Below, piece by piece: positions 1 to 48,800 of a DNA stretch of 64,000 bases (position 1 is its first letter; every line of letters starts with the position of its first letter). The position numbers and the translations under genes were made by a program. The stretch is taken from positions 45,069,061 to 45,133,060 of the forward strand of contig OX638369.1 in the NCBI GenBank assembly GCA_951812925.1, written 5' to 3'. The notes under the pieces are model-generated. The model was not told where the DNA came from, made no database searches, and saw nothing but the letters and a program-made list of their open reading frames with translations. This DNA comes from Calliopum simillimum. Taxonomy: Eukaryota; Arthropoda; Insecta; Diptera; Lauxaniidae.

Positions 1-474
1 CACTTTACTTGTATGTATGTATGTATTCTCCTTTAACTCCTAGGAGGAGCATAGGGCCAATATGAAATCTCTCCATTTGTCACGATCCCTTGCGATGACT
101 TTAATCTCTTGCCACGACTTTTCCGATTCTTGGATTTCCTTTTCCAGCGACCTCTTCCAGTTGGTTTTGGGTCTACCACGTCCTCTACTGCCTTGTGGAT
201 TCCACTCAAGAGCCTGGCGACAAACTTCGCTGTGTGGGTTCCGGAGAGTGTGACCAATCCATCTCCATTTGCGCAGCTTGACCTCGATTGCTATAGCCCT
301 CTGATTGCATTTTTTATGTAGCTCGGCATTTGATATAGTGCGAGGCCACCAAACCTTTAGTATTCGCCTTAAGCATTTGTTGACGAATACTTGTAGCTTG
401 TTCATTAGTTGTTCAGTAACAAGCCACGTTTCGCACCCATATAACAAATCGAATCAAAAATGCGCACTTTACTT
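1..474 (-). mobile_element. 5'-truncated RTE-type LINE fragment with target duplication
   Basis: An open frame on the minus strand (447 to 40) encodes about 135 residues typical of the C-terminal end of a non-LTR reverse transcriptase, with the segments YGCETW, WRWIGHTLR and RGRGRPKTNW. The stop codon is followed by a very short 3' region and an ATAC microsatellite tail, as in RTE-clade LINEs. The ten bases CACTTTACTT occur at 1-10 and again at 465-474, bracketing the fragment as a target-site duplication (it may extend beyond the window edge). The catalytic part of the enzyme is absent, so this is a dead 5'-truncated insertion. RTE is the best clade guess; another LINE clade with a similar tail is possible. 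Confidence 0.75.
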
Positions 475-7846: not shown

Positions 7847-10800
7847 ATGTTTATAAAAAATAGCGCAACTGGGACTTTTGCTAACCTTAAACCGTTGTTA
7901 AATATATTCATTTCACCAATATTTTTTTTACAGATATGGCTGCTTTGCTCTCTTCTAACATCAATCACATGGGCCACCTATATCACATTTTACAATTCCC
8001 GTCTCATGGGTGTTATAATAACAAAAATTGCAAATCGATGGTTTATAAAAGGAGCGTATTTTAAAATTGGTAAGCTTTAATGAAAAAGATATCCGCTATT
8101 AAATAATAATTATTGTTTTTTTTTTTCAATTATAAAGGTTCTGTGTCCTTAAACCCTTTGGCTGGCAAAATAATGTTTCGTGATTTTGTTTACATAGACT
8201 TTGATTATTCTTTGCGCATTCAAGATGGATATTTTATTTTTCGTTGGTGGCGTTCATACGTGCCAAAGGATGTATCAGAAGGTTAATGAAATGAAATATA
8301 TCGGCAAGAGTTAATAATACATATTATTAATTTTAAAATATAGATCTCTCACATTCGGATACTCGTCTCTCTGTTCAACTAAATGGATTTGAGCAACATA
8401 TTTACAATCGCTCTGATTTATATGACCAGCTTGAGAAAACTTTTGGACTTAAAGCTTCACTTTTAATACCGGTTAGTTTAAATATAAAGTTAAATAATGT
8501 GTTAATCCATTATTGCACTGAAAGTATTAAGTTGCGTACGGCAGTGATATTGCCTCCTATTAATATGAATTTCAGTGCTTAATTTTTGAAAAAAAATTGT
8601 TTGTGATTATCTCTTTTCAATTAAATATTTCTTTACTTTATAGACGGATAACCTCTCTGCTGAAGAACGCACCAAAATAAAAGAGCACACCATGAATTTA
8701 GAAAATACACGTCAAAGTCAGCGTGAGAATCGCAGAAAACATTCCGAAGCAATGAAAGCCACTACGTGGCGTGATCTCATACCTGTTATTAAAATTGATA
8801 TTTGCTCAGGGCGTTTTGTTTTTGGAAATCGCCTAACGCCTACAACACTTTCAATTTCAGTTGAGGAAGCACACTGCACATACAGCACCAAGCCAGCTGT
8901 TTGTCGTTTAGATCATTTTATGCACTTTACTAAAGCCAATGTAGAAAATGCAAAAGTAATGTTTGCGCCAAGCCCAAAATACACTGGTTTAGTTGATGAG
9001 CCACCACGTTATATGGGTGAAGGTTTTGTTGTCATGATGTCAAATCAAATGGAACTCTATTTCTATATGGATGAACCGGGTGTTGTACCGGAAGAGCCTA
9101 TTCATATTATTCTAGCTAATGGTGATATTGTCGAGCCATCTCCACCTGTTTGGGGTATTAATATCAAGTGTTTGAAGGGAACTGATTTCAGCTATGGTCC
9201 CTGGGCTGATCGACAACGTGATCATTTATTTAAATTTTTCTTTCCATCTGATTGGCAATTGATGAAAGTTACACCCACAGCGAAACCAGGCGAACTACGC
9301 AGTTATCAGTCATTTGATGTGACACTCTGTGTGCTCAATGAGGCCACAATTGATATACTCTTTTCAAAAGAAAAAGAAACAAATGCTATGCATATCACTG
9401 TTGGTCCTGCATCTTACGTGGAAGTAACTATACCATGGGTTACGGTTGCCGAGGGCTTTACAAGTAAAATACAGGGACAACTATTCCATGTGGAAGCTAC
9501 GACTTCCTTGCAATATCGCAGTTTAGCAGAATTTGAATCGTTAGAGTATAAAGTGCGTATACATTATCCAACCAAATGGAATGCACCACAGGATTGGAAT
9601 ATTGCATTGACAGGCTGTAAGGCTACTGCATATATAGTCTACAAGCACAAATGTTTTTTCCAAGATCTCATTGAGGATTGGGCTAGCAAAGCACGTCCAG
9701 ATATTCTCACTTTTGTTCCATATACATGCAAATTTAACATTCTGTTAAATGAATTTGAAATCCTCACGTTATGTAATGAGTATAATTGGATTGATTGTTC
9801 AAGCGCCAATCAAGAAAACAATCATTTGGCTTTTTGTGGTGATGTTTTCGATATGAGCTTTGCTTTGCCATTTGACGATTTTCTACCAAAAACTGTAACG
9901 TTGAAATTTTGGATACATGGTGAAGGCTTAGATTTGAGTATGTACGTGCCAGAAGTATCTTCAGTACGTCCGATTGTTTTAGCAATTGATGAAAATGCTA
10001 GACTATTGACACGTGGCGGGAAAGTTAAAAATCGCCCAGAACTATATACAAAGAAATGGCGTAAAATTTGTCAACGCAGGTGAGTAAAAACTTTACGCAA
10101 TATTACAAAAAAAAAAAAAAAAATAGTCAATAATCAAACTTATTTCTAGCGCTGGTTGGATCGATTGCTGGACGGTACCTATAGTTGCACTCTCCATACA
10201 GTATATTTATCATCCCGTTCCACCGTTGGGTCCTGATCCCCAAGCCGATATAACCACACCTGAAAAAGAAGAAATTTTGCTCAGTCCTATGCGTATACCA
10301 AAAATACGCAAATCACCCGTTAGCAATTGGCAAAAACCAGAACAGTACAAATTTGATCCAGCAACGTTACCTGCTGATCAAGTGACCGTAGAGTTAGAAA
10401 TTGGTTCATCTGTTTTAATGTGTTACGGCAATGTATTACGTAACTTTATAAATTTGAAAGAAAATATATTTGGTGAAGATCAAAACTTTACGGATATGGA
10501 ACAATCGAATGTTAAGACAAAGGAAAATGGTCGCACTAATCCAAAAAATCAATTGCTTAGCAAGGAAAAGGATTTAGCCACAAAATCTATTTCCGAAGTA
10601 ACAGTACCGGAAGAGAAACAAAAACCTTTTGATCCCCGACTTTATCGTCCATTGGAAGTTATAGTATCGTTAATCATACACGATATACAAGCGCATGTTA
10701 TGAAAAATTGCAATGAAGATGATCCAACATGTCCAGTGATTTTAATTGAACGCTTTGGTTTTGAAATGAATAAACGATTCACTGAAACTGAGCTGCAAGT

Positions 10801-12835
10801 GTTAGTGAGCCCAGCGTATTTGATTACTTCAGATACACTAGTGCGATCAAATCGAGACAAGCATATAAATCAGGGGCATTTACTTTTGTCAGCAGTGCAG
10901 GTAAAACCCCAATATATATACTTATATAACGGAATTAACAATTTTATTAACAACCTGCTCTCCAAAATAAATTCAAAAAGTTGCGGAGTGGCTGGCCATA
11001 AACCTCGTAACGCTAAAATCGTTAAAAAAGGAACCCCTCCCACACAAAAAATGCACAAAGCGTTACTCTTGACTAGACCCTCGGAGCGTCACAAGGTTTA
11101 TGGACAGCTTACTTTTTAAGATAATTTTGGTTCGCTGATTGACGACCATTTAAACTTTGGAAAACTCAAAAATGTTGCTTTAAAATATAACTATTCTGTC
11201 TACCTTATTTTTATATTCTTTTTAGGTGCGTGGACATGCTATGTTTAGCAATGAAGGCTGCGCTCTAGATGAAGACACTCTAGAGTACTCTTGGTTGATT
11301 GAAGTGCAATTGGGAAAGCTATCGGGAAAATTAACATTACCACAACTTTTCAATGTTGTGGTAGGATTAGAAACACTAGTGTTACTTGCTGTCGATCCCG
11401 AAAATTGCTTAAAATCACCAAAAACTGTACGTAATTGTCATCATGGTGTACCAAGTAATCAGTGTCCACATACAAAAGAGGAAAATAAATACAAGTGTCC
11501 GTCAGCTGAGGATATTAAATACAAAATGACGCGCGTCTCTATTGATGCAGTAGATGTATACATTATAGAGAGTGGTACTGCACTGCATACATGGGTATAA
11601 ATATCTACATATTATATCTTGCAAGCTTGATTTAAATTAATTAAATTATATTTTCAGGTTTCACCTATTCGCTTAGCCACATGCAACTTACATGGACAAC
11701 GTGTTAAATCTGGAATTTCTGGTTTGCTTCCTTCGATTTTGCTGCGTCTGTTTATGCTTAACACAGGCTGTAATTCAAACATGACAAATTCTTATAATAC
11801 AAATACAACTGGTAGTAATCGTTCCGGTAAAATTCGTCGTCAGGATCAAGATTCTATTAAGTCAGATATACAGACACAGCAACATGTTAGCAAACCAAAG
11901 CGTTCCTCAAACTCTTTTTCACAGCGTCGAGATTCACGTGATGAAGGTTCGCGTGGCAAATTACGTGATAGTTTTTCCGAAACTAAACGTACATATGAGA
12001 CAGAATTCTTTGAAAATTGGGTTGAAGTGGGATGTACTTCTTTGGGTCCAATATTATTGGAGGGCGCGTCAGCACTACCTATACCTGATCATAAATTGCA
12101 TATTGTACAACATAAGTAAGATTTTTTATACTTGTACTTGTAAGTATTGATCGAACTTAAAAATTTTGTAAATTCCCATCAATTTAGTTTTTTACGTGAG
12201 CATGATGTCAAAACTAAGCGCTTATGGTTCCTTTGGTCCAATAACAATGGGCAAGCTATTACTGCCAGCACCGAAATATCACGTTGTGGTTGTATTGGGG
12301 GTTGCGCTTTCTTTGGCAGTAATCGTAATGGTCTTAAGTTCTTTAAACCCTCTGCACAAGACATGCAAGATAATTATAATATTGCGCGTTATTAGTAAGT
12401 TTTAATAATGGAATAGGCACATGAATAGTTAATTTGAAATGTATATTTACAGCATAATTAATAACAAAAAAGATTATGGTTTTGGTGAAAGCATGCTGCA
12501 TCAAGGACAATTAGTTTTTCACACTCCACCTTATAGTCTAAACTCTGTATCACTGCAAGATAGTGCTGACTTCAACGGAAAAGTATGATTACAATTTTGT
12601 GAATTAAGTTATTATTTTTAATTATTTTTATACTTTAGGGTAAACTCTATCGACCAACCGTTGACATACGTAATGGAAGTTTGAAGAAATCTGATTTAAA
12701 CAACAAAGATGTGGTTGGCAAATTTAAAATTGGTTGCGAAAAACAGGATTTTAATGGAAGAATGTCAAGAGAAAGCATTGGATCGCCGAATACTTTAGAA
12801 CGACGTAGTAAACGGTACTCATTTACTGCCAATAG
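7847..12835 (+). CDS. tweek: tweek exons 1-10, N-terminal part
   Basis: Exons: 7847-8069, 8138-8281, 8344-8471, 8644-10079, 10150-10900, 11226-11594, 11658-12115, 12188-12394, 12453-12582, 12639-12835; residues 1 to about 1347. This block carries the single membrane anchor (IWLLCSLLTSITWATYITF) and the most conserved stretch of the family: YNSR, RIQDGY.IFRWWR, NRSDLY, then in exon 4 WRDLIPVIK, LDHFMH, MGEGFVVM, PEEP and GPWADRQRD. These regions form the start of the lipid-transfer groove in BLTP proteins (established for the family). Intron 5 (10901-11225) stays open in frame for 73 codons before a stop at 11119. Exon 10 ends in AG and joins exon 11 at 15316 across the foldback-bearing intron 10. 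Confidence 0.92.
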
Positions 12836-21800: not shown

Positions 21801-24800
21801 TAGTTATCAGACCAAAAAGCGACAAGTTTTTTCGATCTATATAATTTGGAGGGCTAAAGCAAGGATATCAACCTTTCGTTATAAAATTGGTTCGTTGACA
21901 TCTAAAAAGTAAAAATTCATAGAAGCGCGTACTCCACGTTTTGTTTTAATATGAATACATAGTTTAATAGATTAGCTTAGACTCACTTATTTAAATTCTT
22001 AAAAGAATTAGCACAACATAAGTTATTCTTTTTAATAGAATTTATTTGTATATGCATGTGGTTCGTTGTTAGAAAATATAGTACATTTGGTAACAAAATC
22101 AACTAAATTTATTCATATCTCCATAACATCATTTTTATTTAAAGCATTTAAATTTGAATTAATCACAATTTTTTTATCAAAATTTCTTTATAAGTAAAGT
22201 TAATTTCTATTCTACTTAGCTTTAGAATGCTTTTAGTAAATTTCATTAGATATTATTTTAAGTTATAGCACTTGTATTATATAAATAAACATTTTAATAT
22301 GAACTACTTCGTTTTATTCTAAAAAAAGGTCGACTCACGCGGTTCATCATCAGAGACACCATCAATTTCTTCTAATTCATTCATTTCGGCAATGTCATCA
22401 CAAGAAGATGTGGCTTTGGTTAATTTGCATCAACAGGTCAATCGTCCAATTATTGACTCACCATTACTTATGGCCAGCTATTTAAACCATTTATCACAAG
22501 TAAAATGTTTCAATTGGACAGCTTGTTCGTTTCCATCTGGACCAGATGTATTCTCCACACCATTATTTCATGAGAATGAAGATGGTGGACTCACTTACAT
22601 TGGCAGCAAAATGATACCACATTTTGATTTATATTCATCATGGCGTGAAATTAAAGTTGTGCCACGTTATGAAAATACATCAGGTAGCAATAGTTCAAAT
22701 ACTTTCATTGGTGGTCCTAAATCACATCCTTGGGATCCCAGCGTTTTGCTAAAAGAAGAAGAAAGCGACAAATCTACCAATGGTTTTGATGATGGTGAAT
22801 TTATGAGCTTGCAAACAGAAGGTGCAGCTTGTACATCAGTTGTGGCGAGACTAAAAGGACAAGTTAATGTTTTTCTAACACCACTTCTGTTGGAGGGACT
22901 ACAAAGGTCAGTCGAAAGAATTGTAAATCATTTCAGGAAATGTTTTTATTACAAATTAAGTGACTTAAAACAAAGGCTAAAGTTAGGTTTACAATGTTCA
23001 CTTAGATTTATTTTTTTCTTGTTTGTCCAGCATTTGCTTTCGCTTTACACGAATGTGCTCCTTTTTATTCTCAGAATCTTCATGGTCATTTTGTTCTGCA
23101 CCATGTGGAAACGAATTCTCCAATAACTTTAGGTATTCTGCATCAACAGTATTCTGTATTAATGTTATAAACAGTTAAGCAAATTTTCAAACATTCAAAT
23201 TCACCGTTTTATGTTATGGTTATTGTATTTTAGATGTTTTTCCATTTTCAGATCGATTTTAGGGTAAACTAGCGCATTAAAATATTTTGTAAAATTTTAT
23301 TTCTGAGCCTTACCGGATAAAAATCAAATCAAAGCGTCAGCATCTCAATGGATATAATCTAATAATGAGTATAACTGGTTGTTGTTTTCTAAAATACAAT
23401 TAAAAACGGTGGTGCATGGGAAATTTTTTTCCTTTTACCCACCCCTTGGTTATTTTGTGAATCCTCACGCTTAGCTCGAGCGTTTTCTATTGAATACTGG
23501 GATATTAAGGACTCACGTGGAATTTGAAATCGCAGCACATTTCGTGGTTCACGATTTCCATCTGATTCTGGTTCATTATCATCGTCACCATTTTCAACAG
23601 CGTTTTTGTCTGGAAAATCATAAAATGTTTGCATGTGTTCGTTGCTATCAATAAAGCTGCTGCAAATGCATTAAACAAATTAAAATAAAACTTAAAAAAT
23701 GAACAATTAACTCAGTCTTACTTATCATCTGTTTCATCATCATAATCTGCAGAATTGGAAGAATCAATTAATTTACTAAGCTCTTTCAAGTCTGGCAAAG
23801 ATAGATCGCTTAGAGCCATCTCAATTTCTTTGTCACTCAATGTTTTTGTCATATCCTTTATTTCATTATCGAAAAGTGGTTTTTTCTAAAAGCAAACATT
23901 TGTTTTACAAGTAGGAAAATTAAAATTATTTGTCAGAAAGTTTACCATATAATAATTGGCGCCATTAATGACATTCACGCTGACGAGTATCAATAACACA
24001 CATGCAGCAGTTGTAAAATTGATATAAAATATCATTTTTTAAGATTTTTCAAATATATTTGATGACACTTTGATGAACTTAAACAAAATTGTAACTTTTC
24101 TGTATTTATCAAAATATTGTTTTCATTATATTTGAACAAGTGTTTTATTTACTGAACAGAATGATTGAAGCCTCTATACCTACCATATCGTCGATGCATT
24201 TGCTATCAGTGGTAAATTTTATACATGCATCCTGCATAGCCAAGGTGAAGAATGATAATATCTTAAAAAGAGATCAAAGTTTGAGTTACTGGTCACAGGT
24301 ATGGATATTTGTATGTTGTTACATTAACTTTGACTATTAATGCAATTTTCTTTTAGGTTCATTCAAATTCGAAACGCTCGACAACAGAACGCAACTTGCA
24401 GGGTCCAGGTGACTCATTTTTGAGTGATGTTTATGAAGAAAGTATTTCAACGAAAACTCAAGGTCTTATAGTATTGCCAAAAGTAAGCATCACCATGCTG
24501 CAATCATCCATTATAGAAGAAGTGATTTCTGTGGCCGCATTGGATAATGTTCAGGTAATAAACTTTTACTTTAAAAATCAATATCAATACCTTAGTTTAG
24601 TTCTACAAGGCTCCCGGAAATAAAGCCGTAGGACATAATGGCAGAACATTTTTTTGGAAATGAAGCGACATATTTTCTGTCATTAATTTTTGGAAACAAA
24701 GCCAAAAATTAAATAAGAAGTAACGCCAACATTTTTGAAAATAATGCCATAGGAAATAACGCCAAAAAGTTTTTTGTAAATAAAGCCGAAAATTCTCCGT

Positions 24801-27800
24801 ACAAAAGTTTGCCGTTATTTCCATATTGTTTTGGAAACAAAGCCAAAACCTTTTCTAGCGATTTTATAAAAATGTGTGGGTTTTGTCTGGCGTTAATTTT
24901 GGAAATGTAGCCAAAAATTTATTTTCTAGTTGATTTTTTCACATCCGAAAAATATTTAAAATTGTGAACAAAACTTGTCCAACGATTTTCATTTGGCTCA
25001 ACTTTAATCACAATTTTCGATATCGAACAGTTTTCTATGTTCTGACGCTTATACGCTGTGCAAACTATTTTATTTGCTGGGGTAATGATATCCCGGAGAA
25101 TTTTTTTTTTTTCAAAATGTCTTGCTGAAATTGTCCGGAATTTATTTTACAAATAAAGGTTATTAAATTTTTCCAGCGCCGGCTACCATAATTTTAAATT
25201 GATTAATTTTTAATATGCATTTTGGGTTACTTAATTCGAATCAGTTATTGATTACAATATAACTTCTATAGTTTTTAAACATAATCACCTTCCAAGCACA
25301 GACACCGAAGTTGGGATTTGATGTTGATTTTGGGTGTGCTGTTATTTAATTTATGGCGGGGTCTCCTCTTTTTATCGGTGTATTCGCATTATTTTTTTCA
25401 TAAACTCTCGATCTAAACCACACTTTGATTTAAATAATAAATAAAATAATACTTTTTAGGATTTGAGCTGTGTCTCCTTACTGACATTTTACATCGAGGG
25501 CGTGTCAACTAAATTTCACCTAGGCAAAACAACACGCGCTTCTATGCATAACGTTTATATACAACAAACGGTGCAATCTGGTAGCAGCCACAAAAAAGGT
25601 GGTATTATGAAAGGTACACGTGCGCTGCTCGCACATCTCTCTTCGCAAACTAGACCCGATAATATACAAGGCGAACCCATTTTAATTGAAACATCTGAAA
25701 AGCAATTAGAAGAATTAGTGATTACATTAGATATTGGACGTGCGCATGCACAATTGCGGCGGCTAAAGACAGAAGGTAGTACATGTCAAGATACATCCAT
25801 AATAGTAACTGCCATACCAGACCATAGAAGTAAGGCAATGTTTGAGTGCCTCAAAATGCCAGAAAGTACTGGTATCGATTGCATCGGTTACATAATGTTC
25901 GAATGCGGATTGGAAGGTGTAGGTGTTAAAATTGTCAAACGTTCACATTTTGAAAAATCTGAAAATACGAAAGAAGAACTTGCTGAAATGACAGAAGCAG
26001 CTGCTAACGGTATAGCGAGCGGGAACATTAATATAAACGATATTGTTGGCGGTATTCCTACTGCAGCAACAACGACAACTACAATCGTTGTTGATGTTTC
26101 AGCGACATCAAAGGCAGAAGCTGCTTGGCGTTTAATAACAAAAAAGCCACCAACGCCAAAGACTCCAAAGGAGAAATTTACTCATGCTTTAGAGAATATA
26201 ATGGTTTCCGACCATCGTTCCGGTGAAGGTAGCAGCAATGATAATCGTAAATCAACACCAAAGTTACCCGATGATGATGTTGAAAAGGGTGGCAAGGGTG
26301 GAACTAGTGGTGCAGCTGCTGGCAAGAAACAAGAAACTTTCGATAAAGTTCTGCCAAATGTTAAGGAGACAGATAAGAACTCATCGTGTGTCATTGAATT
26401 AAAAGCAGTTTGGTTTAATTTTGCAGCGCCTCCATGTGTGCCAATAACACGAAAGATTGATTTTACAAGGTGTGCAATAATAATTCAAATGGTAGATTCC
26501 TTTTTAATTTAAAAATTTTTGTATTTTTTTGTTTCTAGGCTTGACTGGAATTTGTTAAGTACAGCGTCGCCAGCGATTACAGCGTGGATGAATCCCAGTA
26601 ATCGCTTAGCTATAAAAATTGTTTCGCTTATGCGCGCTTTGCATACACGTCACACTGCTGTTGCTGCATGTTTAATGGCTGATGCACTAGAAAATGAGAA
26701 AATTCAAAGGAATCCAAAACTTAAAAAGGTAAATCAAAGCAGCTTATTTATATATATAAGAGAGGTCTTCTAAAATTACTACGATATATTTTTCCACTTG
26801 AGATGGGATGCCTAGATGCACTGCGCCTTATCATGAATGAATATTCTCGAGAATTGCCTTGCAGTCTCCATTGCATTCATTCATGATAAGGACCGCTATA
26901 TTATTACTATACTATGTCGTATGTTGCTAATCTTTAACTTGTCTTTAAGAGAGCGGGCTCGGTTTTTTGATGCAGTAATTATCATAAATAAATTTCTATC
27001 TCTTTGGAAAGTTTAATTTTAATTTACTTTTATTAAATTCTTTACAAATATTCTTTACAAAAAAAAGTAATAATCTTTACAATTAAAAAGTTTTCAAATG
27101 CTGCACTGACGAACAAGAGTGCCTCTTAAATTTAAAGATTTCCGTTTACAGAATTTCTCTATCACGTCAGAATTTCGAGAAATTCTAAAATAACAGTGAA
27201 AAACACACGATTTCTCATTATTTTTGAGGTTATGAAAATTAGAATATCTCAAAATCCTGACATGATGGAAACAAACCAAGTTCAGATTCGTGATTAGGAG
27301 GTTCCAAAAATCAAGAGAGGAAAAAAAAGTGTCGAATTTGCAGGCCTGTGTTATCTACCCTACGACTTTATTACACTGTAGTCAAACCAGTACGTGGTTT
27401 GCTGGTTTTACTAAAATTTCATTGCATCCTTTTAGGCTTACTTAAATTATACTTTAAAATAAAAGTATATTTTCGTATATGAAGTTCAATATTATATGAA
27501 TGCCCAAAAGTCTCAAAACCAACGCTTTTGAAATCATTTATTGAACTATGAAATTTCTTACTGGAACTTTATAAAATAATTTTTTTTTTTTTTTTTTTTT
27601 ACAGAGTCGCTATTCTGGTAATTATACGCTGCTTTCGAAAACTCTACAGGAAGATCCAAGCTGTCAACTATGCTATATAATGCAAAAATTAGTTCTGGAC
27701 GAAGGTGTGCAAAAAGTAGAAGAAATTTTCAAGCAAGGCGATATACCACATCTCAATACGTTACGCCAGGTTAAAATTATTTAAAACTTTCATATAAAAC

Positions 27801-33800: not shown

Positions 33801-36800
33801 AAATTCAATAAGTTTCTGTAAAATTTCATCGCATAAATTCTAGCTAAAACTTTCGATTATTTTATTGTTTATTGTTTATTTCATATTTATGAAATTATAT
33901 TAACACTAATTTTTCTTTTCAGAACTGTTGTCAAAGTGACTATTGGCAAAAGTCAGACTCTCTACTCAAGTTTAACTAAACGTAGTAAAGATAAGAATAG
34001 CGGTTTACTTTCAATAGGACCTGTTAATATTGACATACCACAACATCCCGTAGCGCTGCATGGTATGATGACACGCAGCTCTAAACAACTTTCATCGACT
34101 CTTCAAGAATTACGCGTTGGTCGTAATTCGGGGCGAACATCTTCGCGAGCTCAGAATCCTGATGAACCTGAATCACCTTTTCATGTACGAACTTCAGGTA
34201 GCACTGTCGATCCGAAAGAAAACAAACAACAGCAAAATAAGAAATTCTCTACGTTACCACATAAAACTGTGGCACAGCCACATAATGGTTTACTACAGCC
34301 ACTGGTGATGCAGTTTAATGTTTTGCTACAAAGCCTCTCTATCAATGCTGCATTGCTGCCATCATTGCAAGCGCAATATCGCATGAATCATGTTAGCTCT
34401 ACAGGTGTGACAGGAAATCGTGCCAAATTTGTAATTGACTTGCCAACGCATACCCTGAGTTTTACCACTAAAATTCAGGTAAGGGTAAGTTATATCGTTG
34501 CAATTTTATTTATTGGTATGAAGAACAACTAAAAATTATTAAATAACATTATATTTAAATATTTTTGCCTTTATTTGGTTGATTCCAAAAGAAAATTGAT
34601 ATTTTTAGGGTATAGAAACAAAGTCGATAATGCTACATTTTCAAATTCTAGTCAAATAAAGAGAAATCTCTTAAGACAAACAGTAAAGAAAATTTAAGCA
34701 AAATTTCGGCAATTTTTAAGTTACGAAATAAACTGAGCTTTTGGTTTTGTTCATTTTTATACTTTTTATTTAAAACTATAACCTTTATCGCATAGTAAAT
34801 AACATAGCTTTAAATTTAAATCATCATTTGACTCATATTTCTACGGCTAATTACGCATTATGAGTACAAAAATTACTCTTTTTACTTAGTTCAGTACATA
34901 GTATTTATGAGTCTTCGTAATGCATATATCTGACTCAATTATGACAAATATTTGCGACGCATTAATTACTCAAATTATGACTAATTGAGAACTTATTTTA
35001 ATGACTGGCTAATGGCTTATTTAAGATTAATATTGGACCTTATAGTAAATATGGCTAAACTCTCCCTTCTCGAGAATATATTCCCTTCTCAGAATTTGCA
35101 ATCTTTAATATTTTAGGAATGAAAATTCCTTTTCCAACAGCTTTACAAAGTGAAGCAAAAGCATCTGATTAAAAGTGAAGCAATTTGTGAAAATTAAGTT
35201 TAAATAACTTTTAGTGGATTTTGAAAATGAAAAGTTGGCACCACTGCTTTGACAGCTACGGTTAAAAAAAATATAAGCAAACTTTTAACATCTTAATATC
35301 ATTAAAAATCAGGGACGTGAACTGGTTTTGAACCGAACCGGTTTTGAACCGGAAAACCGCTTTTTTCTACTAATTAACTGAACCATTAATCGAACTGAAA
35401 TTTTCACAAATATTTGTTTCGAACCGAAAACCGAACCGCTTTTTATAAAGGTTCAAAGGTTCGTTTCGACCAATTTTCAATAGACAAATTTTCCCCAGTT
35501 TTTAATTTTTTCTTTTGTTAAATATGGTAATACCATGTGGCAATATCATATGTAAAGATCAATGGCAATTGTTGCGTGTGGGGTTGGCATCTTCCAAATT
35601 GCACCTAGTTTGTGCCGTCACAAGCTGTAAAAAAAGAAAGGGGAAAAAAATGGAAAACAAAACGCACTTGTCACAAATAGTAATTTTAGGCACGTCACTC
35701 ACTTTATTTTGCCACTGGATCACTGATGTTCCGTGGATTTTATTTATTTGTTTTTTTTATTAATAGTTTTTTTTAATTTTTAGTTCATTATTGATTTTAT
35801 TTTTCACTTTGCCTGATTCGGCATCTGTTTTTGTTATTATGATTTTCATTTTTGACGTTTCTGCATTCTAATGAGAGAGGTCGGTCATGCAGTTCGAATG
35901 TTGAACGAAAGTACGAATGTTGAACGAAAGTTCGAAAAAGAGAATAGACAGATTGTCAACATTAGGATTGTTTATGGCAACATGAAAATGATTCAATAAG
36001 GGGCTGTTAAGGTTTACAGTGGGTGAGACAACTAGATATTAGTGTAGGCAAAGGAAAAGTGTTGCTGTAGGGTTTTTTGTTAGAATTTAATAAATAGATT
36101 TTTGTTGTTAGTGTTTTGGTAAGATTAAGGAAAACTGTTTTTATGTACTGGTAGTTGCGTTTGTTAAACCGATATTTTTTGGCTTAGCAATAAGAAATTT
36201 TATTCCGGAAATTTCAATAAAAGAAGTACAGCCAAACGTTAAAGACGTTAAAATTAAAGTCGGGTCCATCTTAATAATTTGTCTGATTTTTTTTGTAAAA
36301 AGTCTAAGTGTAATAAAGTTTATTTTTCCGAGTAAAAATTTGTGTGGAAAGCTGATTAAAAATTTAAAGTACAAGTTTTGAGGACAAAAAGGTGATATTT
36401 TGCTAGTTTTTTTTGCGAATCAGAGCAATTGTGTTTTAAATTGGTGTTTTTTTTTGTGATAGAGGAAAGTTCCGGAATTCTATGTGAAAATTCAGGATCA
36501 CCACAAATTAGCAACAGCAGCAGAATATTAAAAGGAGTTTCTAGAAGAGTTTTGAAAGGATAAAAGAGTTGATCAGGAAAGGAAAATTTTATGTAAGTTT
36601 TAAAATTTGGTGATTTTAGTTTTGGAGGTCAGTCAAAAAGTTTTTTTTTGTGTTTGCTAGTGTGGCTGACGGTCGAGTCAAGGACGCAAAATTGAAGCAA
36701 GGCTGTAAAACAGAAGGACCCCTCGGGTAAAAAGGTTAAGTGAACCGGAATAAGGTCAGCCACAATATTTTTCCTAGTTTTATTAAAAATTTTGGATCTG

Positions 36801-39800
36801 CATATAATTACAAGGCGTATTTATAAAACCGGTTTGGATAATAAGTGGAATGTGATTCGGTTACCTCAAAAGTTAAAATTTTAGCAAAAACCATCCACTG
36901 TAAAATTTTCCGGAATTCGAAATTCGGCGATTAGGAGAGGGAGGGATTATCGTTAAGTTTATGTTAAGTTTCGTTTAGTAATTTTTGTGAGAGCAAAAAT
37001 TCCAATTTTTTTTCGATATTGAGTTTTTTTTTGTGTGCGCGAGAAATAACTTAAACGAGCTCATTTAAGGTGTACCTTTTCCGCGAAAAGAAAAAAAAAG
37101 TAATTATTCTAAAAACGCGTTTCAAAAGAGAAAAATAAATTTTTCGATTTGGATTTTTTGGTCGTTAGGGATTATTTTAAGTGTGGGCTTAATGTTTGCA
37201 CGTTAGGGGTGGGCCGCGCTAGGTACGAAAGCTATAAGGGACCTATAACAATATGGCGCCCAATCAGAAATAAAGAAATACTACAGTGGGGTAGAAAGAT
37301 CAAGACCCTTAAAAATAAAAACAAAAAAAAAATATAGTTTCAGGTCTCGATTTTGTCTTATCGAGTTCTCTAATTTTCAAAGTGACTTAGACATTGAAAA
37401 AAAAAAAAAATAAAGCTAAAGGCATTTTGGATTGGAGGAGCCGATGACACTGTAATCGGAAGTATTTGTGATTTGGCCTCGTCGTGCTCTTCGTTATGAA
37501 ATGGCTTAATCAGCTTGATTAGCAAAATTAATTGCATTTTGTGAGGGGGAATCCGAAGAGCTGCAAATCGCAGTTTTTTTTAAAAAAAATTTTGTTTAAT
37601 TAAATTAAAGTAAAAGCAATTAAATTAAAATAAAAGCAACCATTATTTTATAAAAGATTTAAATGTCCATTTTAACCAGTTGAGAAATCTGATAGCTTAG
37701 GAAAAAACCCGATGTTAGACCTAATTGTACCGGATAATTTAACAGTGTTGGAAGGACAGAAGCTAGATGAAGATTCATACATCATAGCCACAATAGTTTG
37801 AAAGCTGTAGCCTCATTGCTGATAGTTGTAAAGCAAATAAGTTGTACAGTACAGAAAACAGTAGGAAATGGAATCGTGGCCTAAGTATAGATTTGATTTT
37901 TTTTATTACGTAGTTGCACGAATTCTAAAAGCGAATGAAGTATTAACCTTTGATGATTTAATAGATTACCACACCAGCATCTCGATGAGAGTGCGCAGTA
38001 GTCAAGAAATGATATAGACCTTATAATCACCCATTTTTCGGCAAATTAAATTCCCCTCAATTTTGGCTCTATCAAATAAAAACCAAAAGTTAGACAGAAA
38101 ATAAGTCTTGTCATCAAGTCAGCGTAAAATACGTTTGTAAATGGAGTTACGAAATTCCAAAACAAAGAAACGCTTTAGAATGGAAGAGGGAAATATAACT
38201 TTATCCGATCAAAGCCCAATTAAAAAATTGCGTAACGTGGAAGTAAATCAAATGGAGTTAGACGATCCACTTGTAAGTCCCGGATTTATAGACCTCTCAG
38301 GTTCAATAAATGCACCTCTACCAGAGCCAGTTGCAATTGGCACTGAAACAGTACCTTCTCCAGGAGAAGCTGCTGCACTACCCAAAAATACAGGCACAGT
38401 TAGAAGGTTTGACCCGATGCCTTCTAGCATTCTTCAAGCCACATTGGATAATATGGAAAGTAGGTTTAGTTTATCGAACCGCAGCAAAAACAAAGAAAAG
38501 GAAACCATTGATATAATTAACCAAGTCGTAGTGAGATCTAATACAGAGTTTAGGGCGTCTTTAGAAAAATCAATAGACGAGAAGTTTAAAATACTTATGG
38601 AAAATAGTCTTACGGAAATTAAAAAAATGTTGAATCCCAGTAACGATTTACCTCACAGAGGTCAAGTCCCAAATGAATCTTGCGTCTTCACGGGGTTAGG
38701 AGCTGATAGGGCTGTAGATCAGCGTAGTTCGGTATCGCAACCATCAGCATTGGCGAATGTGCCTGGAAAGAAGAATGATAACCAAAATAATGTGCAATCA
38801 AGATGTGCTACATACAACCAGAACACCAGCATAAATAATTAACATAATCAAACAAAATTTGAAAGGAAGCATTGGTAAAATGATGTTCAATGTAAATATT
38901 AATACCGTGAATCAGCTACGAGTTGAATGCATTAAAATTGAGCAGTATTTGTCGCGCTGTGAAGGAAGAGGAGCTGTAAACTATAATTCGAATTTTGGAC
39001 GTCAGCATCGAGTGCATGAGCTGAATGCGATCACATTTCATGATGAAGTTGATCAGGATAATTTGTATGATGATGTCTTAGTAGATGAAATGCACACATC
39101 AAGACGGGCGCCGTTGAAACAACAACAATCTTATCAACAGCAACCGCAGCTTAAAAGCATGAATCAACAGCGAAAATATAATGAGCAACAGCAACAAAAT
39201 CAGCAGCAGCAACAGAATCAGCAGTCAAAACAGCAGTGCCAAGAGCCAACAAAACGGATACTTATATGTTGGAATTGTAAGCAAAATGGTCACGTATACA
39301 TGGATTGCCCCATTATGCAACGCTCGATCTTCTGCTACAAGTGTGGTTTGCCTGACACTGTAACGCCGAAATGCCCAAATTGCACTATGGGAAACGCGGT
39401 GAGGAACGTGATTCCAGCGGGGGAAACGCGCTCCAATCGAAACCCCGCAGAGAATCAGTAAACATGAATGATGATAATTTGTTACTCGGTGAAGATAGAG
39501 TTGATGAACCTAAGGAGAAAAATAGTATTAAAATTTTGCAAGCAGTAAAAAATTTCAATATTGAAAACAACATAATTAAAAGGCCATTTGAAATCGAACC
39601 ATTAGAAGAAAGAATTAAAAACTACTATATAGTCAGAGATCGTATTTTCAATGAAAGCCTGCTTAGTGGGATGCGTGTAGTATCAAGAAAAATTAGAAAA
39701 GCGAGGGATAATTATGCTAAAAGAAAACGAATGCGTTCTTTAGTCTCAGAAGCAGTTAGCAAAGCGAGCGAAATTGATCCACGACCGTATGCAATGATAA

Positions 39801-42800
39801 ATGTTAAGGGCATTGAAATAAAAGGTCTTTTGGATACTGGAGCTTCTGTATCAATACTAGGCCGTAATTGTAGAGAGCTTTTAATGAAAATGGAAGTTGC
39901 AATTGAAAAGTTTTTTTCGACTGTGAAAACTGCTAGTGGTCAAAAACACACCATTATTGGGAAAGTCAAGCTACCGGTGACTTTTAATAATAAATCAAAA
40001 ATTATAGATTTTTACCTGTGTCCGAATCTCGAGCAGAAGGCTTATTTAGGGATTGATTTTTGGAGGTCATTCGAATTAGCATTGGATGTAATCGGAGTAG
40101 AAGAATTGGATGTTGAAAAAATTGTCAACCATTTTAAAAATGATAAAAGCGATAATTAAGAAGAGCCAGAAAAACATATATTGAGTCCAGAAGAGCAGCA
40201 GCGTTTAGATGAGGTGAAAAAAATGTTTATTACTTTTAAAGAGCAGGGTCTTGGTAAGACGCAAATGGAAAAACATTCAATACAATTAATAGAAGGTGCA
40301 ACGCCGGTTAAGGACAGGCACTATCCCGTCTCACCAGCAGTACAGGACCTTATTTATGCGGAAGTTGACAAAATGCTAGATTTAGGAGTAATAGAAGAAA
40401 GCGAAAGCCCGTGGAGTAACCGAGTTACAATTGTTAGAAAGCCAGGAAAAAATAGATTATGCCTCGACGCGAGGAAATTGAACGATCGCACGATTAAGGA
40501 CGCTTACCCGCTACAGAATATCGACGGTATTTTGAGTCGTATAGATCATACACACTATATAAGTAGCGTGGACTTAAAGTTCGCTTTTTGGCAATTAGAG
40601 CTTGATGAAAAAAGCAGACCATACACGGCTTTTACAGTGCCTGGACGACCGCTCTACCAATTCGCTGTGATGCCGTTTGGATTATGTAATGCGGCCCAGC
40701 GCTTATGTAGACTCATGGATAAAGTAATACCGCAGAGGCTTAAATCTAATGTATTTACATATCTGGACGATCTTCTAATTATAGCGGCTGATTTCGAAAC
40801 ACATGTAAAAATCCTTGGTGAAGTTGCAGAGTGTTTAAAAAAGGCAAATTTGACTATAGGCTTACAAAAATCCAAATTCTGTTTTAAAGAATTGAAGTAC
40901 CTTGGTTTCTTAGTTGGAGGCGGGATGCTGAAAACAGACCCCGACAAAGTAACGGCCATACAGAGAATTTCACTGCCAAAATCGCCAAGAGAGGTCAGGA
41001 GTTTTCTAGGGACCGCAGGCTGGTATAGGCGATTCATTAAAAATTTTGCGTCAATTTCAGCACCATTAAGCGACACATTGAAAAAGGGTACCAAGTTCAC
41101 CTTAACTCCAGAGGCAATTGAAGCATTCAAAAGTTTAAAAAAATCTTTGACGTCAGCACCTGTGTTAAAGCATGCAGATTTTTCAAGACGTTTTTGGATT
41201 CAATGTGACGCGTCGGATAGTGGAGTCGGAGCTGTTTTGTTCCAAAAAGACAACGAGGAGAATGAGAGACCGATAGCTTACTTTTCGCAAAAGCTAAATC
41301 CATGCCAAAGGAACTACAGCGTCACGGAAAAGGAATGTTTGGCTGCAGTGCTCGCTATAAAACGCTTTCGACCATATGTGGAAATGATGCCGTTTACAGT
41401 GATAACGGATCATGCTAGCTTGAAATGGCTCATGTCACTAAAAGATCTCACGGGTAGACTCGCTCGGTGGTCACTTCAGTTGCAGTCATTTGATTTTCAA
41501 ATTGAACACCGTAAGGGATCAGAGAACGTAGTGGCTGACACTTTATCTCGATTTGTGGACGAGCTTGATGCAACTGATACTCAATGGCTGGACATGGAGA
41601 CCACTGAGTTTGAGTCCCCTGAATATGTGGAGATGGTAAAAGCAGTTGAGGAAAATCAGGATAAACTGCCGGACTTAAGAATAGAAAATGGAGTTTTATT
41701 CAAACGAACACGATTCGAGCAAGAGGATGCTGAAGCGAAATGGAAGCTGTGGGTTCCAGAATCCTTGACATCAACATTAATAGAAAAAGCGCATTGCCCA
41801 GAAACTGCGTCGCATGGTGGTGTAGTTAAAACTTTACATCGGCTAAGGCAATTTTATTATTGGCCAAAAATGACGGTTCAAGTAGCGAATTTCATAAGGA
41901 ACTGCACAATTTGCAAAGAGTCAAAATCTACAAATAAAGAGCTTAGGCCTAGAATGGGTAATGAGGTTATTACAGAGCGCCCTTTTCAGAAAATTTATAT
42001 CGATTTCCTAGGCAAATACACACGATCGAAAAGTGGAAACTCATACATTTTCATAGTGGTTGATCACTTTTCAAAATTTACGTTACTAAAAGCTATGCGT
42101 GAAGCAACAACAGCTAAAGTGATTGAATTTTTAACGCGTGAGGTTTTTCATAAATTTGGTGTGCCGGAGGTTATCCATTCCGATAATGGAAAGCAGTTCA
42201 TTTCAAAAGATTTTTGCAAAATGTTAGAATTGTACAAAATAAAGCATTTAAAAACAGCATTTTACGCGCCGCAATCAAATGCAGCAGAGCGGGTTAACCA
42301 GTCCATCTTAGCGGCAATAAGATCTTATATGCAAGAAGATCATCGCGACTGGGACCTTTATCTTTCGGAAATAGAGTGTGCTTTGAGGAGCTCAGTCCAT
42401 TCAGCGACAGGAGTAACCCCATTTTTCGCGTTGTTTGGACATAACATGTACACTAGTGGAACCGACTACAAGCTTGCAAGGAAACTAAACTCATTAAGTG
42501 AGCCAGATTTGCTGATAGCCAATAATGAAGATCGAATATCTTTGATAAGGGATAAAATGAAAGAAAACCTGCATAAGGCGTACGTAAGAGGAGCAAAACA
42601 ATACAACAAAAGAAGCCGAGAAATTCAGTTTGTGCCAGGACAAGAAATTTTTAAGAGAAACTTCCCAGCTAGTGACTTTAAAAGCAACATAAATGCAAAA
42701 TTTTGCAAAAAGTTTTCGAAATGTCGCGTGGTAAAGCCGTTAGGCAATAATTTATATGAACTTGAAAATTTGGCAGGAAAATCGATAGGCGTATTCCATG

Positions 42801-45800
42801 CAAAGGATTTGAAACAGTAAGAGAATGAGCAAAAATGAGACTGACTACAAAATACGAAAAGTGCAATAGAGGATATTCAGAATTAATTCTTCATACAAGT
42901 GCAATATCTACGTATTATTTTACATCTACCACATAATTATATAGCAATTACCACCATGTGCAATATTTACCACCTACGATGTAAGTTGTCTCGTCCTTGT
43001 ATGTGCTGATGTCCTCGAGATTTTTGTTCCATCCTACTGTGCAATATTATGATTAAGTCCTATAGTACCTGAAAAGTTGATTTCAAATTACCACAAAGTA
43101 AAATACTTATAATTCGAAAAATCATAGTTACGTCCCGTAAACGTTGCAAAAGATAATACTGCTATCAAAGAAACTGGTTCGCATACAACTGACAGGAACA
43201 CCTGCTTTGAAAAAAAAAAAAAAAAAAAATTTATAAACAAAATAAAAATGTTAGCGATGGATTGCCCGGCTAGCTAGTCTAATAGCATGAGACTCCTAAT
43301 CTCAGGGTGTGGGCGGAAGCCTTCGTTGGGCATTTGTGGAAATTAATGTTAATTAAATGAAAACCTTTCAAATTTTTAATGAAATTTCGGCCTAAACAAT
43401 GTTGAGGTCAACAAGACAACAACAAGTGCTTATAAGCATAAAGTTTTTTTTTGCAGACATGTTTTCATTTTTGTTTTTTTTTTTTCACCAAAAGGTAGTT
43501 TATTTTTTTTAAGGTTAGCTTACCTTTTGTCACACAGCACACCGCCTTGTCTGCAGATGGCCCGGGGACATCTTGACCAATGCAGAGTTTTGTTGCGTGT
43601 GGGGTTGGCATCTTCCAAATTGCACCTAGTTTGTGCCGTCACAAGCTGTAAAAAAAGAAAGGGGAAAAAAATGGAAAACAAAACGCACTTGTCACAAATA
43701 GTAATTTTAGGCACGTCACTCACTTTATTTTGCCACTGGATCACTGATGTTCCGTGGATTTTATTTATTTGTTTTTTTTATTAATAGTTTTTTTTAATTT
43801 TTAGTTCATTATTGATTTTATTTTTCACTTTGCCTGATTCGGCATCTGTTTTTGTTATTATGATTTTCATTTTTGACGTTTCTGCATTCTAATGAGAGAG
43901 GTCGGTCATGCAGTTCGAATGTTGAACGAAAGTACGAATGTTGAACGAAAGTTCGAAAAAGAGAATAGACAGATTGTCAACATTAGGATTGTTTATGGCA
44001 ACACAATCCATCTTATTTGACAGACACTTGTCAGAAATTTTGCTGCGGAACCAATATGTTTTGACTGCTGTATTATACCTTGATCTACAGTATCAAATTC
44101 TCCTTACTGATTCAGAAAAAAATACTGCAATTGAACATATTATACATGTTTTTAATCTAAAATCTAAATAGTATGCAGGCTACTCTCGACACGTCAATGT
44201 CTTCGAAATTTAGTACCGATGACGAAATTGATGAAATTTTAAAGAAAAAGGGAAGAAAGAGACAAAGTTTGATAATAGATCATTAAAAGAAAAAATCAAA
44301 TCGTTTGATAATACAAAGCGGGTTTCAAATAATGTTGATGTTTCGAACTTATGAAATAACTACACAGACAAAGTTATCTAAATTAGCACAAATTATTTTT
44401 GGTGTTCCAACAACTCATTTTTCGGTAGAGAGAGCATTTTCTACCCTAAAATTTGTTCTCGGAGACCTGCGAGGAAATATTGACGAGGACTTGCTAGAAG
44501 ATATTCTTCTCGTCAATCTCAACTTATTTTTGTAAACCAAATTTTTTACCCGGTTCACGTCCCTGTTAAAAATAATCAAAACAAAGAAAATTACAAAATT
44601 AGCGATGGTCTACGAGTTCGGCCAAATAAATCTCCAAACCTTCACATAAAGAAAAAGTGATGAAGTTAGTTGAAACACTTGGATGGATATCTAAAATATT
44701 GATGTCATGTTAAAGGTATTTTTATAAGTTATAAAATTGTCCAGGAAATTTTTTTTGCGATCGCAAACTAGTGAAAAAGAGAATAAATTCACGAGAATAT
44801 TTATTTGCGACAAAGCCCATTTGTTATATTAACAGTAAATTTAGAAAGTATTTTGGATTATTATTTTTTTTTTTTGATTACCAAAATAGTTTTTCAAAAT
44901 TATTTGAACAATGATTAAACGAAACATTTTTATGTAAAAATACTGTGTAATAAATGTGGTTTCGTCGGTTAATTTTTAAAAGCCTCAAAAAAAAAAAAAT
45001 ATTCTTTCATGAGTAATTTTATGAACGCTCAGAAAATGCACATATTTCTGACGCTTTAAAGAACTTATAAATTACACAAATAAGACTATTTATGAAATGT
45101 GGTTGAGTCCTGAAAAACTTAATTAGTTTAATCATAAAACATCTTTACAAGCGTCCAGGCACATTTTTGTGTAAAAAAGGCTGCTTAACTTGTCTAATTT
45201 ATGCATGAAATTTTCTGAAAAAATTTAAGTTCTTTATTAATTTTTGTTTAGTACGAAGTACTTATTTTAAACTTGAGCTTAAATACTTTAACTTTATAAC
45301 TATGCGTTTTAGTTTTTGAATATTTATTCCAACAAACAATTTTATAACCTTTACAATTTATCGCTTGGAAAAAGTTAATTTCCAAATGTTTTCGTAACCA
45401 ATTTTCAAACGTTTGGAAAATGTTAATTTCTTAGAATTTTCACAATTAATTTGTAATGTTAAAATAAACAATTTGAAAATGTTTATTTTCAAATGTTTTT
45501 GTAATCGTTTTTCAAACTTTTAAAAATTTTTTTAATTTAGTTTTTCAATGACCTATCGAGCTAACCCAGTGTGCCAGACGGTTCATATCTCCGCTTTTAC
45601 TGATCCGTTTGCGGGAGAGATTCCCAAAAAAAAAAGCGAATCGTTTTGTTTTTTGGAATCGTTTTTTTTTGGAATTTCTCCCGCAAACGGATCAGTAACG
45701 GATCCGTAACGGATAAAAAAGCGGAGATATGAACCGCCTGGCACACTGGGAAGTAAAACACATGACATTTGAATTATAACTGGCACGTTAATTCATTTGA

Positions 45801-48800
45801 TAAAATTTTCGACTCATAACTCGGAAGTCATTGGTTCGATTCTTGGTAAACATAAGATTTTTTTTTAAACACTTACAAAAAACTTATTAAAAAATTTACA
45901 AAAATAATTTAAATATATTGTAGAAAAACATTTATAGTAAGCCTTTTCCAAATAATTTTTACAAGCTTTCTATGAAAGGTCCAATTTTGCTAATTAAACA
46001 ATTTAAATTCAAGAATTTACAAACATTTTGCAAGTTAATTTCCAAACGAAATGCTTGTTACAATAAGCGTATAATAATTTATTTCCAAAACGTTTTTTGT
46101 TTGTTGGGATGCTCTTATTTAGAGAAATGGAACAAGAAACTAAAACTTAAAAAAAGCGTGTTTTTATGCTGAATATAAAAACTCTACAAACTTTCAAAAT
46201 CATTCAGACATTTTCAGAAATGCATCGTTTTATATGACATGCCTGATTCCTTTTCTTTAGAACATTCTTTAGATTGCGGAAATTAAAAACCAACTTATTA
46301 TGTACTTATATCTAATCTCTGAGTGACATAAAATAGAGCAGTCCTTCCGATACTCTTTTCAAATTTTTAAGTGCCATGCAAGCCTTATTTGTTGTCCCAT
46401 TTTGTTTGCTCAAAAGAACTTTATAAAGGATTTGTTACATGCGGTTTCAAAGTGTTAAAAGAAGTAATCGGATATGAATTTTCAATGTTTTTTTTTTTTA
46501 TTTTTTAAAATTTTTGGTTCATCAGGAGATTTTTGAGAAAAATTTTTTTAAAAAACTTTTCGACTTGGCGAATAGTAGTAACTAGTAGAATTTAAATTTT
46601 TAAAGTTACTTGAAGCTTCTGTAATGCATCTGTGAAAACTTTAATTTCTATGTTTAGAATGAAATGAACTTACCATCTGAAGCCTGCATTGCCTTGCCCC
46701 CAGTTCATGTGAGTGCGGAATACATTCCAGAAAATAAACAAGAGGTATATTCATATAAAATTGTGTCACAAAAGCATTGTTTTTAATTTTTTTTTTTTTG
46801 ATTTACTTATTTTTTTTTTTAAAAAGGACACCGAAGTCGAAGGTATCGTATTGCGTCAAGGTGGCTACGTTAATGCTTCTGCTGAAATCGGAGAATTTGA
46901 ACGTTGTCTTACTACTGATTTGCTTAATCATTTGGTATTTGTTCAAAAGGTTTTTATGCGAGAAATAAACGAAGTTCTTCAAAAAGTTTATGGCGGTGAG
47001 AAACCGGTGCCACTTTGGTCTGGTGAAGATAGCGATAGTGGTAGCGTACAAGAATCAACGCTTAAACGAATACTTTTCTCCATAAATATATCAATGAAAA
47101 GAATACAGCTAACAGCAACAACACCTTGCTCATCAGCGGTGCGCTTTGAAACTGGCACACTTGAGTTGCATCTTTCCAATCGTGTTAAAAATTTAGGCGA
47201 AGGAAACGATCGAAAAATGTTTGGCAAGGCACATATCGATTTTAATCTATCGCTGGGTCAGATAATACGTAATGTAATTTTTGACGAAGCCGAGCCAGAG
47301 TTCCAACAATATGCCTTTTTCCACACAACCATCGGTTTGCGTAATGCATTCCAAGATGAACTTCTAAATGAAGATAAGGAATTGATCTTACTGAAGCTCA
47401 AACGCCCGTTGGTATACATTCAACCGATAGCTGTGGATAAGGCGATATTAGTTTGGTTAAATTACAAGAATGCTTACGAGTATTGGGCGGAAAAACGTGC
47501 CAATTTAAATTATGAGTGCTCTCAGCAAACACAGGTTTGTGAATTTTTTAATAAAATTTTGTTTTGTCAACTTCAGTTTGTTTCTGTGTTCAGGTTTTTG
47601 ATCGCGTTGCTTTTGGACAGTTTGGCAATATTGCTGCATCAAACTTATCTACGCTTTTTCTACAATTGACAGTGGAGGATATGGGCATTTGTGTGCCTCT
47701 TAATCAGGCGGCTCAAGTAATGAATGCATTTGTTTTTGAATTTTCCATGGACTACATTCAATATTGTTTTTAATTTTTAAGTCATGGGGCTCTCGTTCGT
47801 ATCAGGATTTTGAACCAAAAGGCGCTGTAGTAATTACTCTGGAGAATACCATAATTTCTGCATGCAATTCTGGTTCTTTAGTATCCAAGGGCAAGTTTTC
47901 AGGCTTATGTTTACGTTTTGCTGATGATTTTGAGACCACTTTGGATGATTGGAAACCAAATACAAACGATGCGAACATAATGAATTTGTGCATAGTATCG
48001 GAGGGTACATTTGAAGTTTGCTCACGAACAGCTGCTGCTAAGAAACTTGGTAAGTTCATTAAATTATTAAAATTAATAGGCTAAGGTAATATTCATCGTT
48101 ATCATGGCAGTCGTTTTTCCATTAACACGACTGTCGTATCATATTTACAATGTGGAACGAATGAATGACTGTCGTTTTAGTCAAAATACGAATGATAACG
48201 ATGAATTCAAATTAATTCAAAGTGAACGAATTCGATTTTTTTATTTTTAAAGAAAATGCTAAATGGTTGCTTAACGTCAAGTGGCAGATGGAAGGTGTCG
48301 ACATACATTTGGATATTAACATTGGCAAACAACTTTCTTCTCTGGGCCACACGCTCACGATGTTGACTGGTTCTGAGGATGAAGATACTAATATGGAATC
48401 TCCAGATAGTGATGAGGGTGATCACAGTTGTCGTGATACGTATGTGCGTAAGCGTGAGTTTGAAAATCTTCCTGCTTTTGTTTTTGATCCCACCATTGAT
48501 TCGAAAAAGCGTTCCTTTATGATGGAGAAAGAAATAGCTGAGCAACTAAAGATAATCAATGATTTGCGTACACTTGGTGCATCACATAATACCGTTGCAC
48601 ACGAGGAACGTCGATTGCAAGAGTTACAGGCAATTTGTTACAAGTATTTCCGCCGTGATATGATACAAAAATGGAAACGACCATCCATTAGACGTTCAAT
48701 GAAAACGTCAACGCGCTCGTATTCATTCATTGGGGCATCAGCGAATCGAGAACAAATTGACGATGGTGGTTTAGCCAATGCTTACAACAGTACAAATCGT

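What the first reader, a model, noticed from the sequence alone, without database searches (positions are those of the whole stretch)
22907..24159. Complete antisense gene packed inside tweek intron 15
A four-exon minus-strand gene with signal peptide, phased introns, stop and poly(A) signal fills almost all of a 1.25-kb tweek intron. Its 3' end lies within about 40 bases of a tweek exon and its start about 125 bases from the next. The product (about 208 residues, secreted, very acidic, with KR sites) is of no family I recognise. Host and nested gene could interfere transcriptionally.
Basis: partly seen in the sequence, partly recalled or inferred. Interest (0 to 1): 0.75.

Follow-up and report, generated by a model that had tools for sequence, protein, structure and literature searches.

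The report
Hidden gene inside a fly gene's intron
A complete small gene for an apparently secreted, acidic protein of no known family lies backwards inside one intron of a large fly lipid-transfer gene; genes inside introns are common in flies, so the arrangement is ordinary, but no relative of the protein was found in the databases searched.

Summary
The tweek/BLTP1 intron 22907-24159 (1,253 nt) contains on the minus strand a four-exon, 208-codon gene: 24035-23946, 23885-23722, 23659-23443, 23153-22998. A plain gene-finding calculation on the intron picks exactly this model at light intron penalties (60 bits; 400 dinucleotide shuffles give at most 19). Codon-position GC matches tweek at positions 1 and 3. 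It is the highest-scoring minus-strand place in the window, and no second copy was found in the 690-Mb genome. The product has a signal-peptide-like start, a cysteine-free remainder of pI 4.6 and two R-X-K-R convertase-type sites, no Pfam, NCBIfam or PDB match, and no relative in two protein searches of a database that holds many fly proteins. Exon 1 is the weakest part; the promoter is unresolved; there is no RNA evidence; 'intron 15' is unverified. Best reading: a real, fast-evolving or lineage-restricted orphan gene for a secreted, proteolytically cut precursor. Interference with tweek is possible but untested. New member of a known kind; modest interest.

The parts
22907..24159 (+). host intron of tweek/BLTP1 (GT-AG, phase 2) that contains the nested gene
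   Evidence: Sequence; joined flanking exons match Pfam BLTP1_M in one stretch across the junction, E 2.9e-10.
23946..24035 (-). nested gene exon 1: ATG and signal-peptide-like segment (30 codons), phase-0 donor ATG|GTAAAC
   Evidence: crude signal-peptide rule met, 0.009 such exons expected per 1,253-nt strand. Codon score neutral, -1.0 bit, and not better than its other frames; dropped in 12 of 24 settings.
23722..23885 (-). nested gene exon 2 (164 nt), donor TAA|GTAAGA
   Evidence: Open in frame, +20.0 bits; the other two same-strand frames score negative with 6 and 12 stops.
23443..23659 (-). nested gene exon 3 (217 nt), holds the first R-X-K-R site (residues 146-149)
   Evidence: Open in frame, +26.3 bits; the other two same-strand frames score negative with 13 and 2 stops; one antisense frame scores +16.5 but has 2 stops. 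Site.
22998..23153 (-). nested gene exon 4 with stop TGA; second R-X-K-R site (residues 192-195)
   Evidence: +14.3 bits in frame; the other two same-strand frames score negative with 2 and 7 stops. Site.
22945..22950 (-). AATAAA, proposed poly(A) signal of the nested gene, 38 nt from the host 5' splice site
   Evidence: one of six AATAAA on this strand of the intron, the only one after the stop codon. Cleavage 10-30 nt downstream is general knowledge, not observed.
22354..22906 (+). tweek exon before the intron (start approximate)
   Evidence: end fixed by the GT at 22907.
24160..24298 (+). tweek exon after the intron; may hold the nested gene's promoter on the other strand
   Evidence: promoter only as scattered consensus matches.

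Best explanation
The intron holds a real, separate protein-coding gene, transcribed by RNA polymerase II on the strand opposite to tweek. Shown from sequence: a complete spliced reading frame with coding-type codon statistics, a start, a stop and a possible poly(A) signal. Inferred: the mRNA starts at or just inside the downstream tweek exon, ends within a few tens of bases of tweek's 5' splice site, and encodes a secreted precursor whose signal peptide is removed (best by rule after residue 25) and which a furin- or PC-type convertase cuts after RAKR (149) and RVKR (195). That would release an acidic N-terminal part, a peptide of about 42 residues (150-191) and a basic 13-residue tail. The gene is fast-evolving or lineage-restricted and its protein probably has no functional tie to tweek.
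For: It is the optimum of a gene-finding calculation in all 12 settings with intron penalty 0 or 3; 0 of 400 shuffles come near. Codon-position GC 0.48/0.27/0.29 against 0.48/0.40/0.31 in tweek; exons 2-4 score +14 to +26 bits in frame, the other two same-strand frames negative with stops. Top minus-strand place of the window; the next one not overlapping it scores 28.5. Signal-peptide-like exon 1, 0.009 expected by chance. Two R-X-K-R sites; 0.00055 of 20,000 residue shuffles have two or more. No cysteine after the signal segment. No second copy found, so not a multicopy transposon.
Against: No RNA data and no relative, so no test of selection between species. Exon 1 is weak: neutral codon score, dropped in all 12 settings with intron penalty 6 or 9, and with more flank the calculation preferred another first exon (24237-24184) without a signal peptide, antisense to tweek coding sequence. 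The first two donors score only 0.4 and 0.5 bits (the third 5.5). One antisense frame of exon 3 also scores +16.5 bits, though with 2 stops. AATAAA is frequent here. No clear promoter. No amidation signal.
Confidence: 0.72

Rival explanations
1. The gene is real and coding but exon 1 is wrong: translation starts at an internal ATG (23852) or from another first exon, so the product is not secreted and the R-X-K-R sites are incidental.
For: Intron penalties of 6 or 9 give the three-exon model 23852-22998 (12 of 24 settings); with wider flanks a first exon at 24237-24184 scores best. Codon score of exon 1 is neutral.
Against: The alternative first exon is antisense to tweek coding sequence, which can distort its codon score (inference). 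A signal-peptide-like exon with an in-phase donor is expected 0.009 times per strand by chance, and two R-X-K-R sites fit secretion.
Confidence: 0.13
2. The antisense transcript matters mainly as a regulator of tweek (transcriptional interference or masking of the 5' splice site near 22907); the protein is secondary.
For: The proposed 3' end lies within about 40 nt of the host donor. In C. [quoted passage not shown]
Against: Codon-level signal across exons 2-4 is what protein selection leaves. Rfam gave only one sub-threshold match. PMC3786989 cites a comparison of 752 D. melanogaster host-nested pairs without significant expression correlation (passages).
Confidence: 0.07
3. Chance or dead sequence: a fortuitous chain of open frames, or a former gene no longer expressed.
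For: No relative in two searches of about 5.8 billion proteins; no expression evidence.
Against: 0 of 400 shuffles above 19.4 bits against 60.3; no stop or frameshift across 208 codons; codon-position GC like tweek's at positions 1 and 3.
Confidence: 0.04

Closest known systems
Opposite-strand nested genes in introns of Drosophila, e.g. 2mit in timeless2 intron 11 (PMC3786989, abstract and passages) and the pupal cuticle protein gene in Gart (recalled, no call)
   Same: A protein-coding gene with its own exons, opposite in direction, wholly within one host intron. About 6% of D. melanogaster genes are nested and about 85% of those code for proteins. 2mit also has a signal peptide.
   Different: Different host (tweek/BLTP1), different protein (2mit is a 1,141-residue single-pass membrane protein with 2 exons), four exons in a 1.25-kb intron with little spare room; no expression or conservation shown here.
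Neuropeptide and other secreted prohormone precursors of insects (a kind, not one family)
   Same: Signal-peptide-like start, acidic chain without cysteine after the signal segment, two R-X-K-R convertase-type sites.
   Different: No match to a named precursor in the searches made, no amidation motif, no repeated peptide copies seen by eye; might equally be a seminal, salivary or immune secreted protein.

Membership tests
Nested (intronic) protein-coding gene | Whole coding sequence lies within one intron of another gene | tested here: met
   Coding exons 24035-22998 inside intron 22907-24159; host junction supported by BLTP1_M.
Nested (intronic) protein-coding gene | Complete independent reading frame with coding statistics | tested here: met
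   60.3 bits; 0 of 400 shuffles above 19.4; in-frame codon scores of exons 2-4; exon 1 neutral.
Nested (intronic) protein-coding gene | Own transcript, expressed from its own promoter | not testable with these tools
   No RNA data; only scattered TATA/Inr consensus matches in 24330-24036.
Secreted prohormone / neuropeptide precursor | N-terminal signal peptide | tested here: inconclusive
   Hydrophobic core and a -3/-1 site after residue 25 by a crude rule; no SignalP here; exon 1 itself uncertain.
Secreted prohormone / neuropeptide precursor | Dibasic or R-X-K-R convertase sites | tested here: met
   RAKR 146-149, RVKR 192-195; 0.00055 of 20,000 shuffles of residues 26-208 have two or more. 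Cleavage not tested.
Secreted prohormone / neuropeptide precursor | Amidation signal (G before the basic site), frequent in neuropeptides but not universal | tested here: not met
   No G[KR][KR] in the 208 residues.
Secreted prohormone / neuropeptide precursor | Sequence match to a known precursor family | tested here: not met
   No Pfam match above cut-off (best SLATT_5, E 0.2), no NCBIfam match, no PDB match, no protein relative. Not filed as a member of any named family.
Tweek / BLTP1 (host gene) | BLTP1 N, M and C regions in order on one strand | tested here: met
   BLTP1_N on ORFs 8644-11116, BLTP1_M on the exons around the intron, BLTP1_C on ORFs 46713-51859, all + strand.

The most novel reading that the evidence does not exclude
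The gene encodes a previously unknown secreted signalling precursor restricted to one fly lineage, whose promoter and 3' end overlap tweek exon and splice signals so closely that the two genes are expressed as alternatives.
Probability: 0.1. Interest if true: 0.6.

Novelty: new member of a known kind. Interest (0 to 1): 0.36.

Why it matters
It is a clear case of a complete gene found by reading the strand opposite a well-known gene, with a product for which two large protein searches found no relative. If expressed, it adds an orphan secreted precursor to the fly repertoire. Its tight fit in a 1.25-kb intron would make it a compact test case for host-nested interference. The arrangement itself is common in flies.

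Tried and rejected
Paralogues in the own genome: the only 4 matches at E up to 1 are the gene's own exons; the DNA search finds only itself; both score only the best candidates. Viral contigs: 4 stretches matched a pattern, none a relative. RNA families over 22800-24300: one match below its gathering score (26.1 of 109 bits, E 0.92), rejected. SLATT_5 Pfam match (E 0.2, 11.5 bits, cut-off 29.5) rejected as chance. Promoter: exact TATAAA at 24223 and Inr-type sites at 24255 and 24164 among other matches, no convincing pair by eye, left open. Alternative forms: intron 3 retained (174 residues), donor at 23439 (161 residues), exon 3 acceptor shifted by 3 nt (207 residues, 58.4 against 58.8 bits, cannot be excluded). 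Host exon count: a crude plus-strand model of 1-36000 gave 9 exons before the one ending at 22906, and put a 12-nt exon at 23252-23263 inside the host intron, which I take as spurious; so 'intron 15' stays unverified. A PDB match for the joined host exons was sought and not found.

Literature for a gene nested in tweek: searches returned no paper; one search matched 143 papers on 3 of 4 terms, of which I saw the 20 listed; the one that holds all four terms mentions tweek and nested genes in separate places (PMC12765595, two passages). Searches gave background listings only. The library holds open-licence papers only.

The fly species was not identified; in the 120 listed hits of the control protein no named match exceeds 84% identity.

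Limits of the negative protein searches: they need shared 5-residue words and a similar length; the control (a cuticle protein with 174 relatives) is much better conserved than an orphan precursor is likely to be; and annotators may have missed the gene in other flies.

Full report
What was checked. The host intron runs from GT at 22907 to AG at 24158-24159 on the + strand. Joining the exons around it gives a protein in which one stretch, residues 167-323, matches the Pfam BLTP1 middle region (E 2.9e-10, 38.6 bits, cut-off 27), with the junction at residue 191. The exon before the intron alone, read five codons into the intron, had no match and an ORF downstream only a sub-threshold one (19.7 bits), so the joined reading is better than its parts; only 24 matched residues lie before the junction. 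[quoted passage not shown] that it is C. elegans LPD-3 is recalled). BLTP1 in flies is tweek (PMC9719229 and PMC7613979, search listing only, and recall). The number of the intron could not be confirmed.

The nested gene. Exons are 90, 164, 217 and 156 nt (the last with the stop); introns are 60, 62 and 289 nt. AATAAA lies at 22950-22945, 38 nt from the host donor; the ATG is 124 nt from the host acceptor. AATAAA occurs six times on this strand of the intron, so only its place after the stop speaks for it. One upstream ATG frame of five codons lies at 24126.

Is it more than chance? I trained codon scores on 2,983 tweek codons against 200 kb of background from the same genome, used generic fly splice-site weights (recalled, not trained), and let a dynamic-programming search choose the best gene on each strand of the intron. 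None of 400 dinucleotide shuffles reached it (maximum 19.4, mean 5.2, SD 2.2). Of 320 background strand-pieces (20 loci, 8 pieces, two strands), 5 scored higher, up to 96.4; their longest open frames are 106 to 417 codons and look by eye like genes or transposon genes (no family search was made on them). In the window, of 151 overlapping minus-strand pieces the top three all overlap this gene (66.0, 56.6, 30.6) and the next has 28.5, antisense to a tweek exon. Codon-position GC is 0.48/0.27/0.29 against 0.48/0.40/0.31 in tweek; positions 1 and 3 agree, and position 2 differs, which I attribute to the many acidic and polar residues.

Weak points. Exon 1 has a neutral codon score (-1.0 bit), no better than its other frames. 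With intron penalties of 6 or 9 instead of 0 or 3 the search drops it and starts at an internal ATG at 23852 (12 of 24 settings); with more flank it prefers a first exon at 24237-24184 that lies antisense to tweek coding sequence (66.0 bits) and reads without a signal peptide (by eye). In favour of exon 1: in 400 kb of background strand, 130 ATGs lead in an open frame of 20-60 codons to a phase-0 donor at least as strong, and 3 of these 130 meet a crude signal-peptide rule, i.e. 0.009 expected in a strand of this length. The first two donors score low (0.4 and 0.5 bits), the third, GTGGGT, 5.5. One antisense frame of exon 3 scores +16.5 bits but with 2 stops. Promoter elements are indecisive.

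The product. Residues 26-208 have pI 4.6, 43 acidic and 26 basic residues and no cysteine. Two R-X-K-R sites lie at 146-149 and 192-195; 0.00055 of 20,000 residue shuffles have two or more. No G precedes a dibasic site, so there is no amidation signal.

Relatives. No Pfam match above cut-off, no NCBIfam match (that library is made for bacteria and archaea), no PDB match, no relative at E up to 1 among about 5.8 billion proteins (104 candidates shared words), nor with residues 29-130 alone at E up to 10 (21 candidates). A control search with a cuticle protein of the same genome returned 174 relatives, 120 listed, many of them named fly proteins (Drosophila, Musca, Lucilia, Stomoxys, Sarcophaga, Teleopsis, Anastrepha and others), so the database does hold flies. 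No second copy was found in the genome. This fits a fast-evolving or lineage-restricted gene, or one missed by annotators elsewhere; I had no other fly genome to decide.

How it most likely works. Shown: a complete spliced frame with coding statistics. Inferred: antisense Pol II transcription, secretion, convertase cutting into an acidic N-terminal part, a 42-residue middle peptide and a 13-residue tail. The proposed RNA end lies close to tweek's 5' splice site and the start close to or within the next tweek exon, so collision or antisense effects on tweek are possible. The literature is mixed: in C. [quoted passage not shown] PMC3786989 cites 752 D. melanogaster host-nested pairs without significant expression correlation (passages); [quoted passage not shown]

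What is known. About 6% of D. melanogaster genes are nested, frequently in the opposite direction, about 85% of them coding (PMC3786989, passages). The arrangement is therefore ordinary. I found no report of a gene nested in tweek by the searches (20 of 143 papers listed).

Noticed in passing
35569-35868 and 43590-43889, with ORFs 38141-42817: A Gypsy-like LTR retrotransposon on the + strand lies between tweek ORFs (near 34.4 kb and 46.7 kb): reverse transcriptase, RNase H and integrase matches and a pair of 300-nt direct repeats 100% identical, which suggests a recent insertion.
   Followed up: partly
58488-59162: Tandem array of a 41-bp unit, 16.5 copies, 98% matches.
   Followed up: no
24600-24918: Loosely repeated motifs such as 'ggcgttatttcc' in the tweek intron after the next exons; by eye, translated lines resemble a frame of the unrelated locus L008, so probably a dispersed repeat.
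   Followed up: no
L023, 1,253-base piece starting at 3748, minus strand: A background stretch encodes an open frame with a signal-peptide-like start and acidic repeats of the type NLEDDSDDNAE, possibly another small secreted gene.
   Followed up: no
43-453 (-): 137-codon open frame that looks by eye like a fragment of a non-LTR retrotransposon; no Pfam match.
   Followed up: partly
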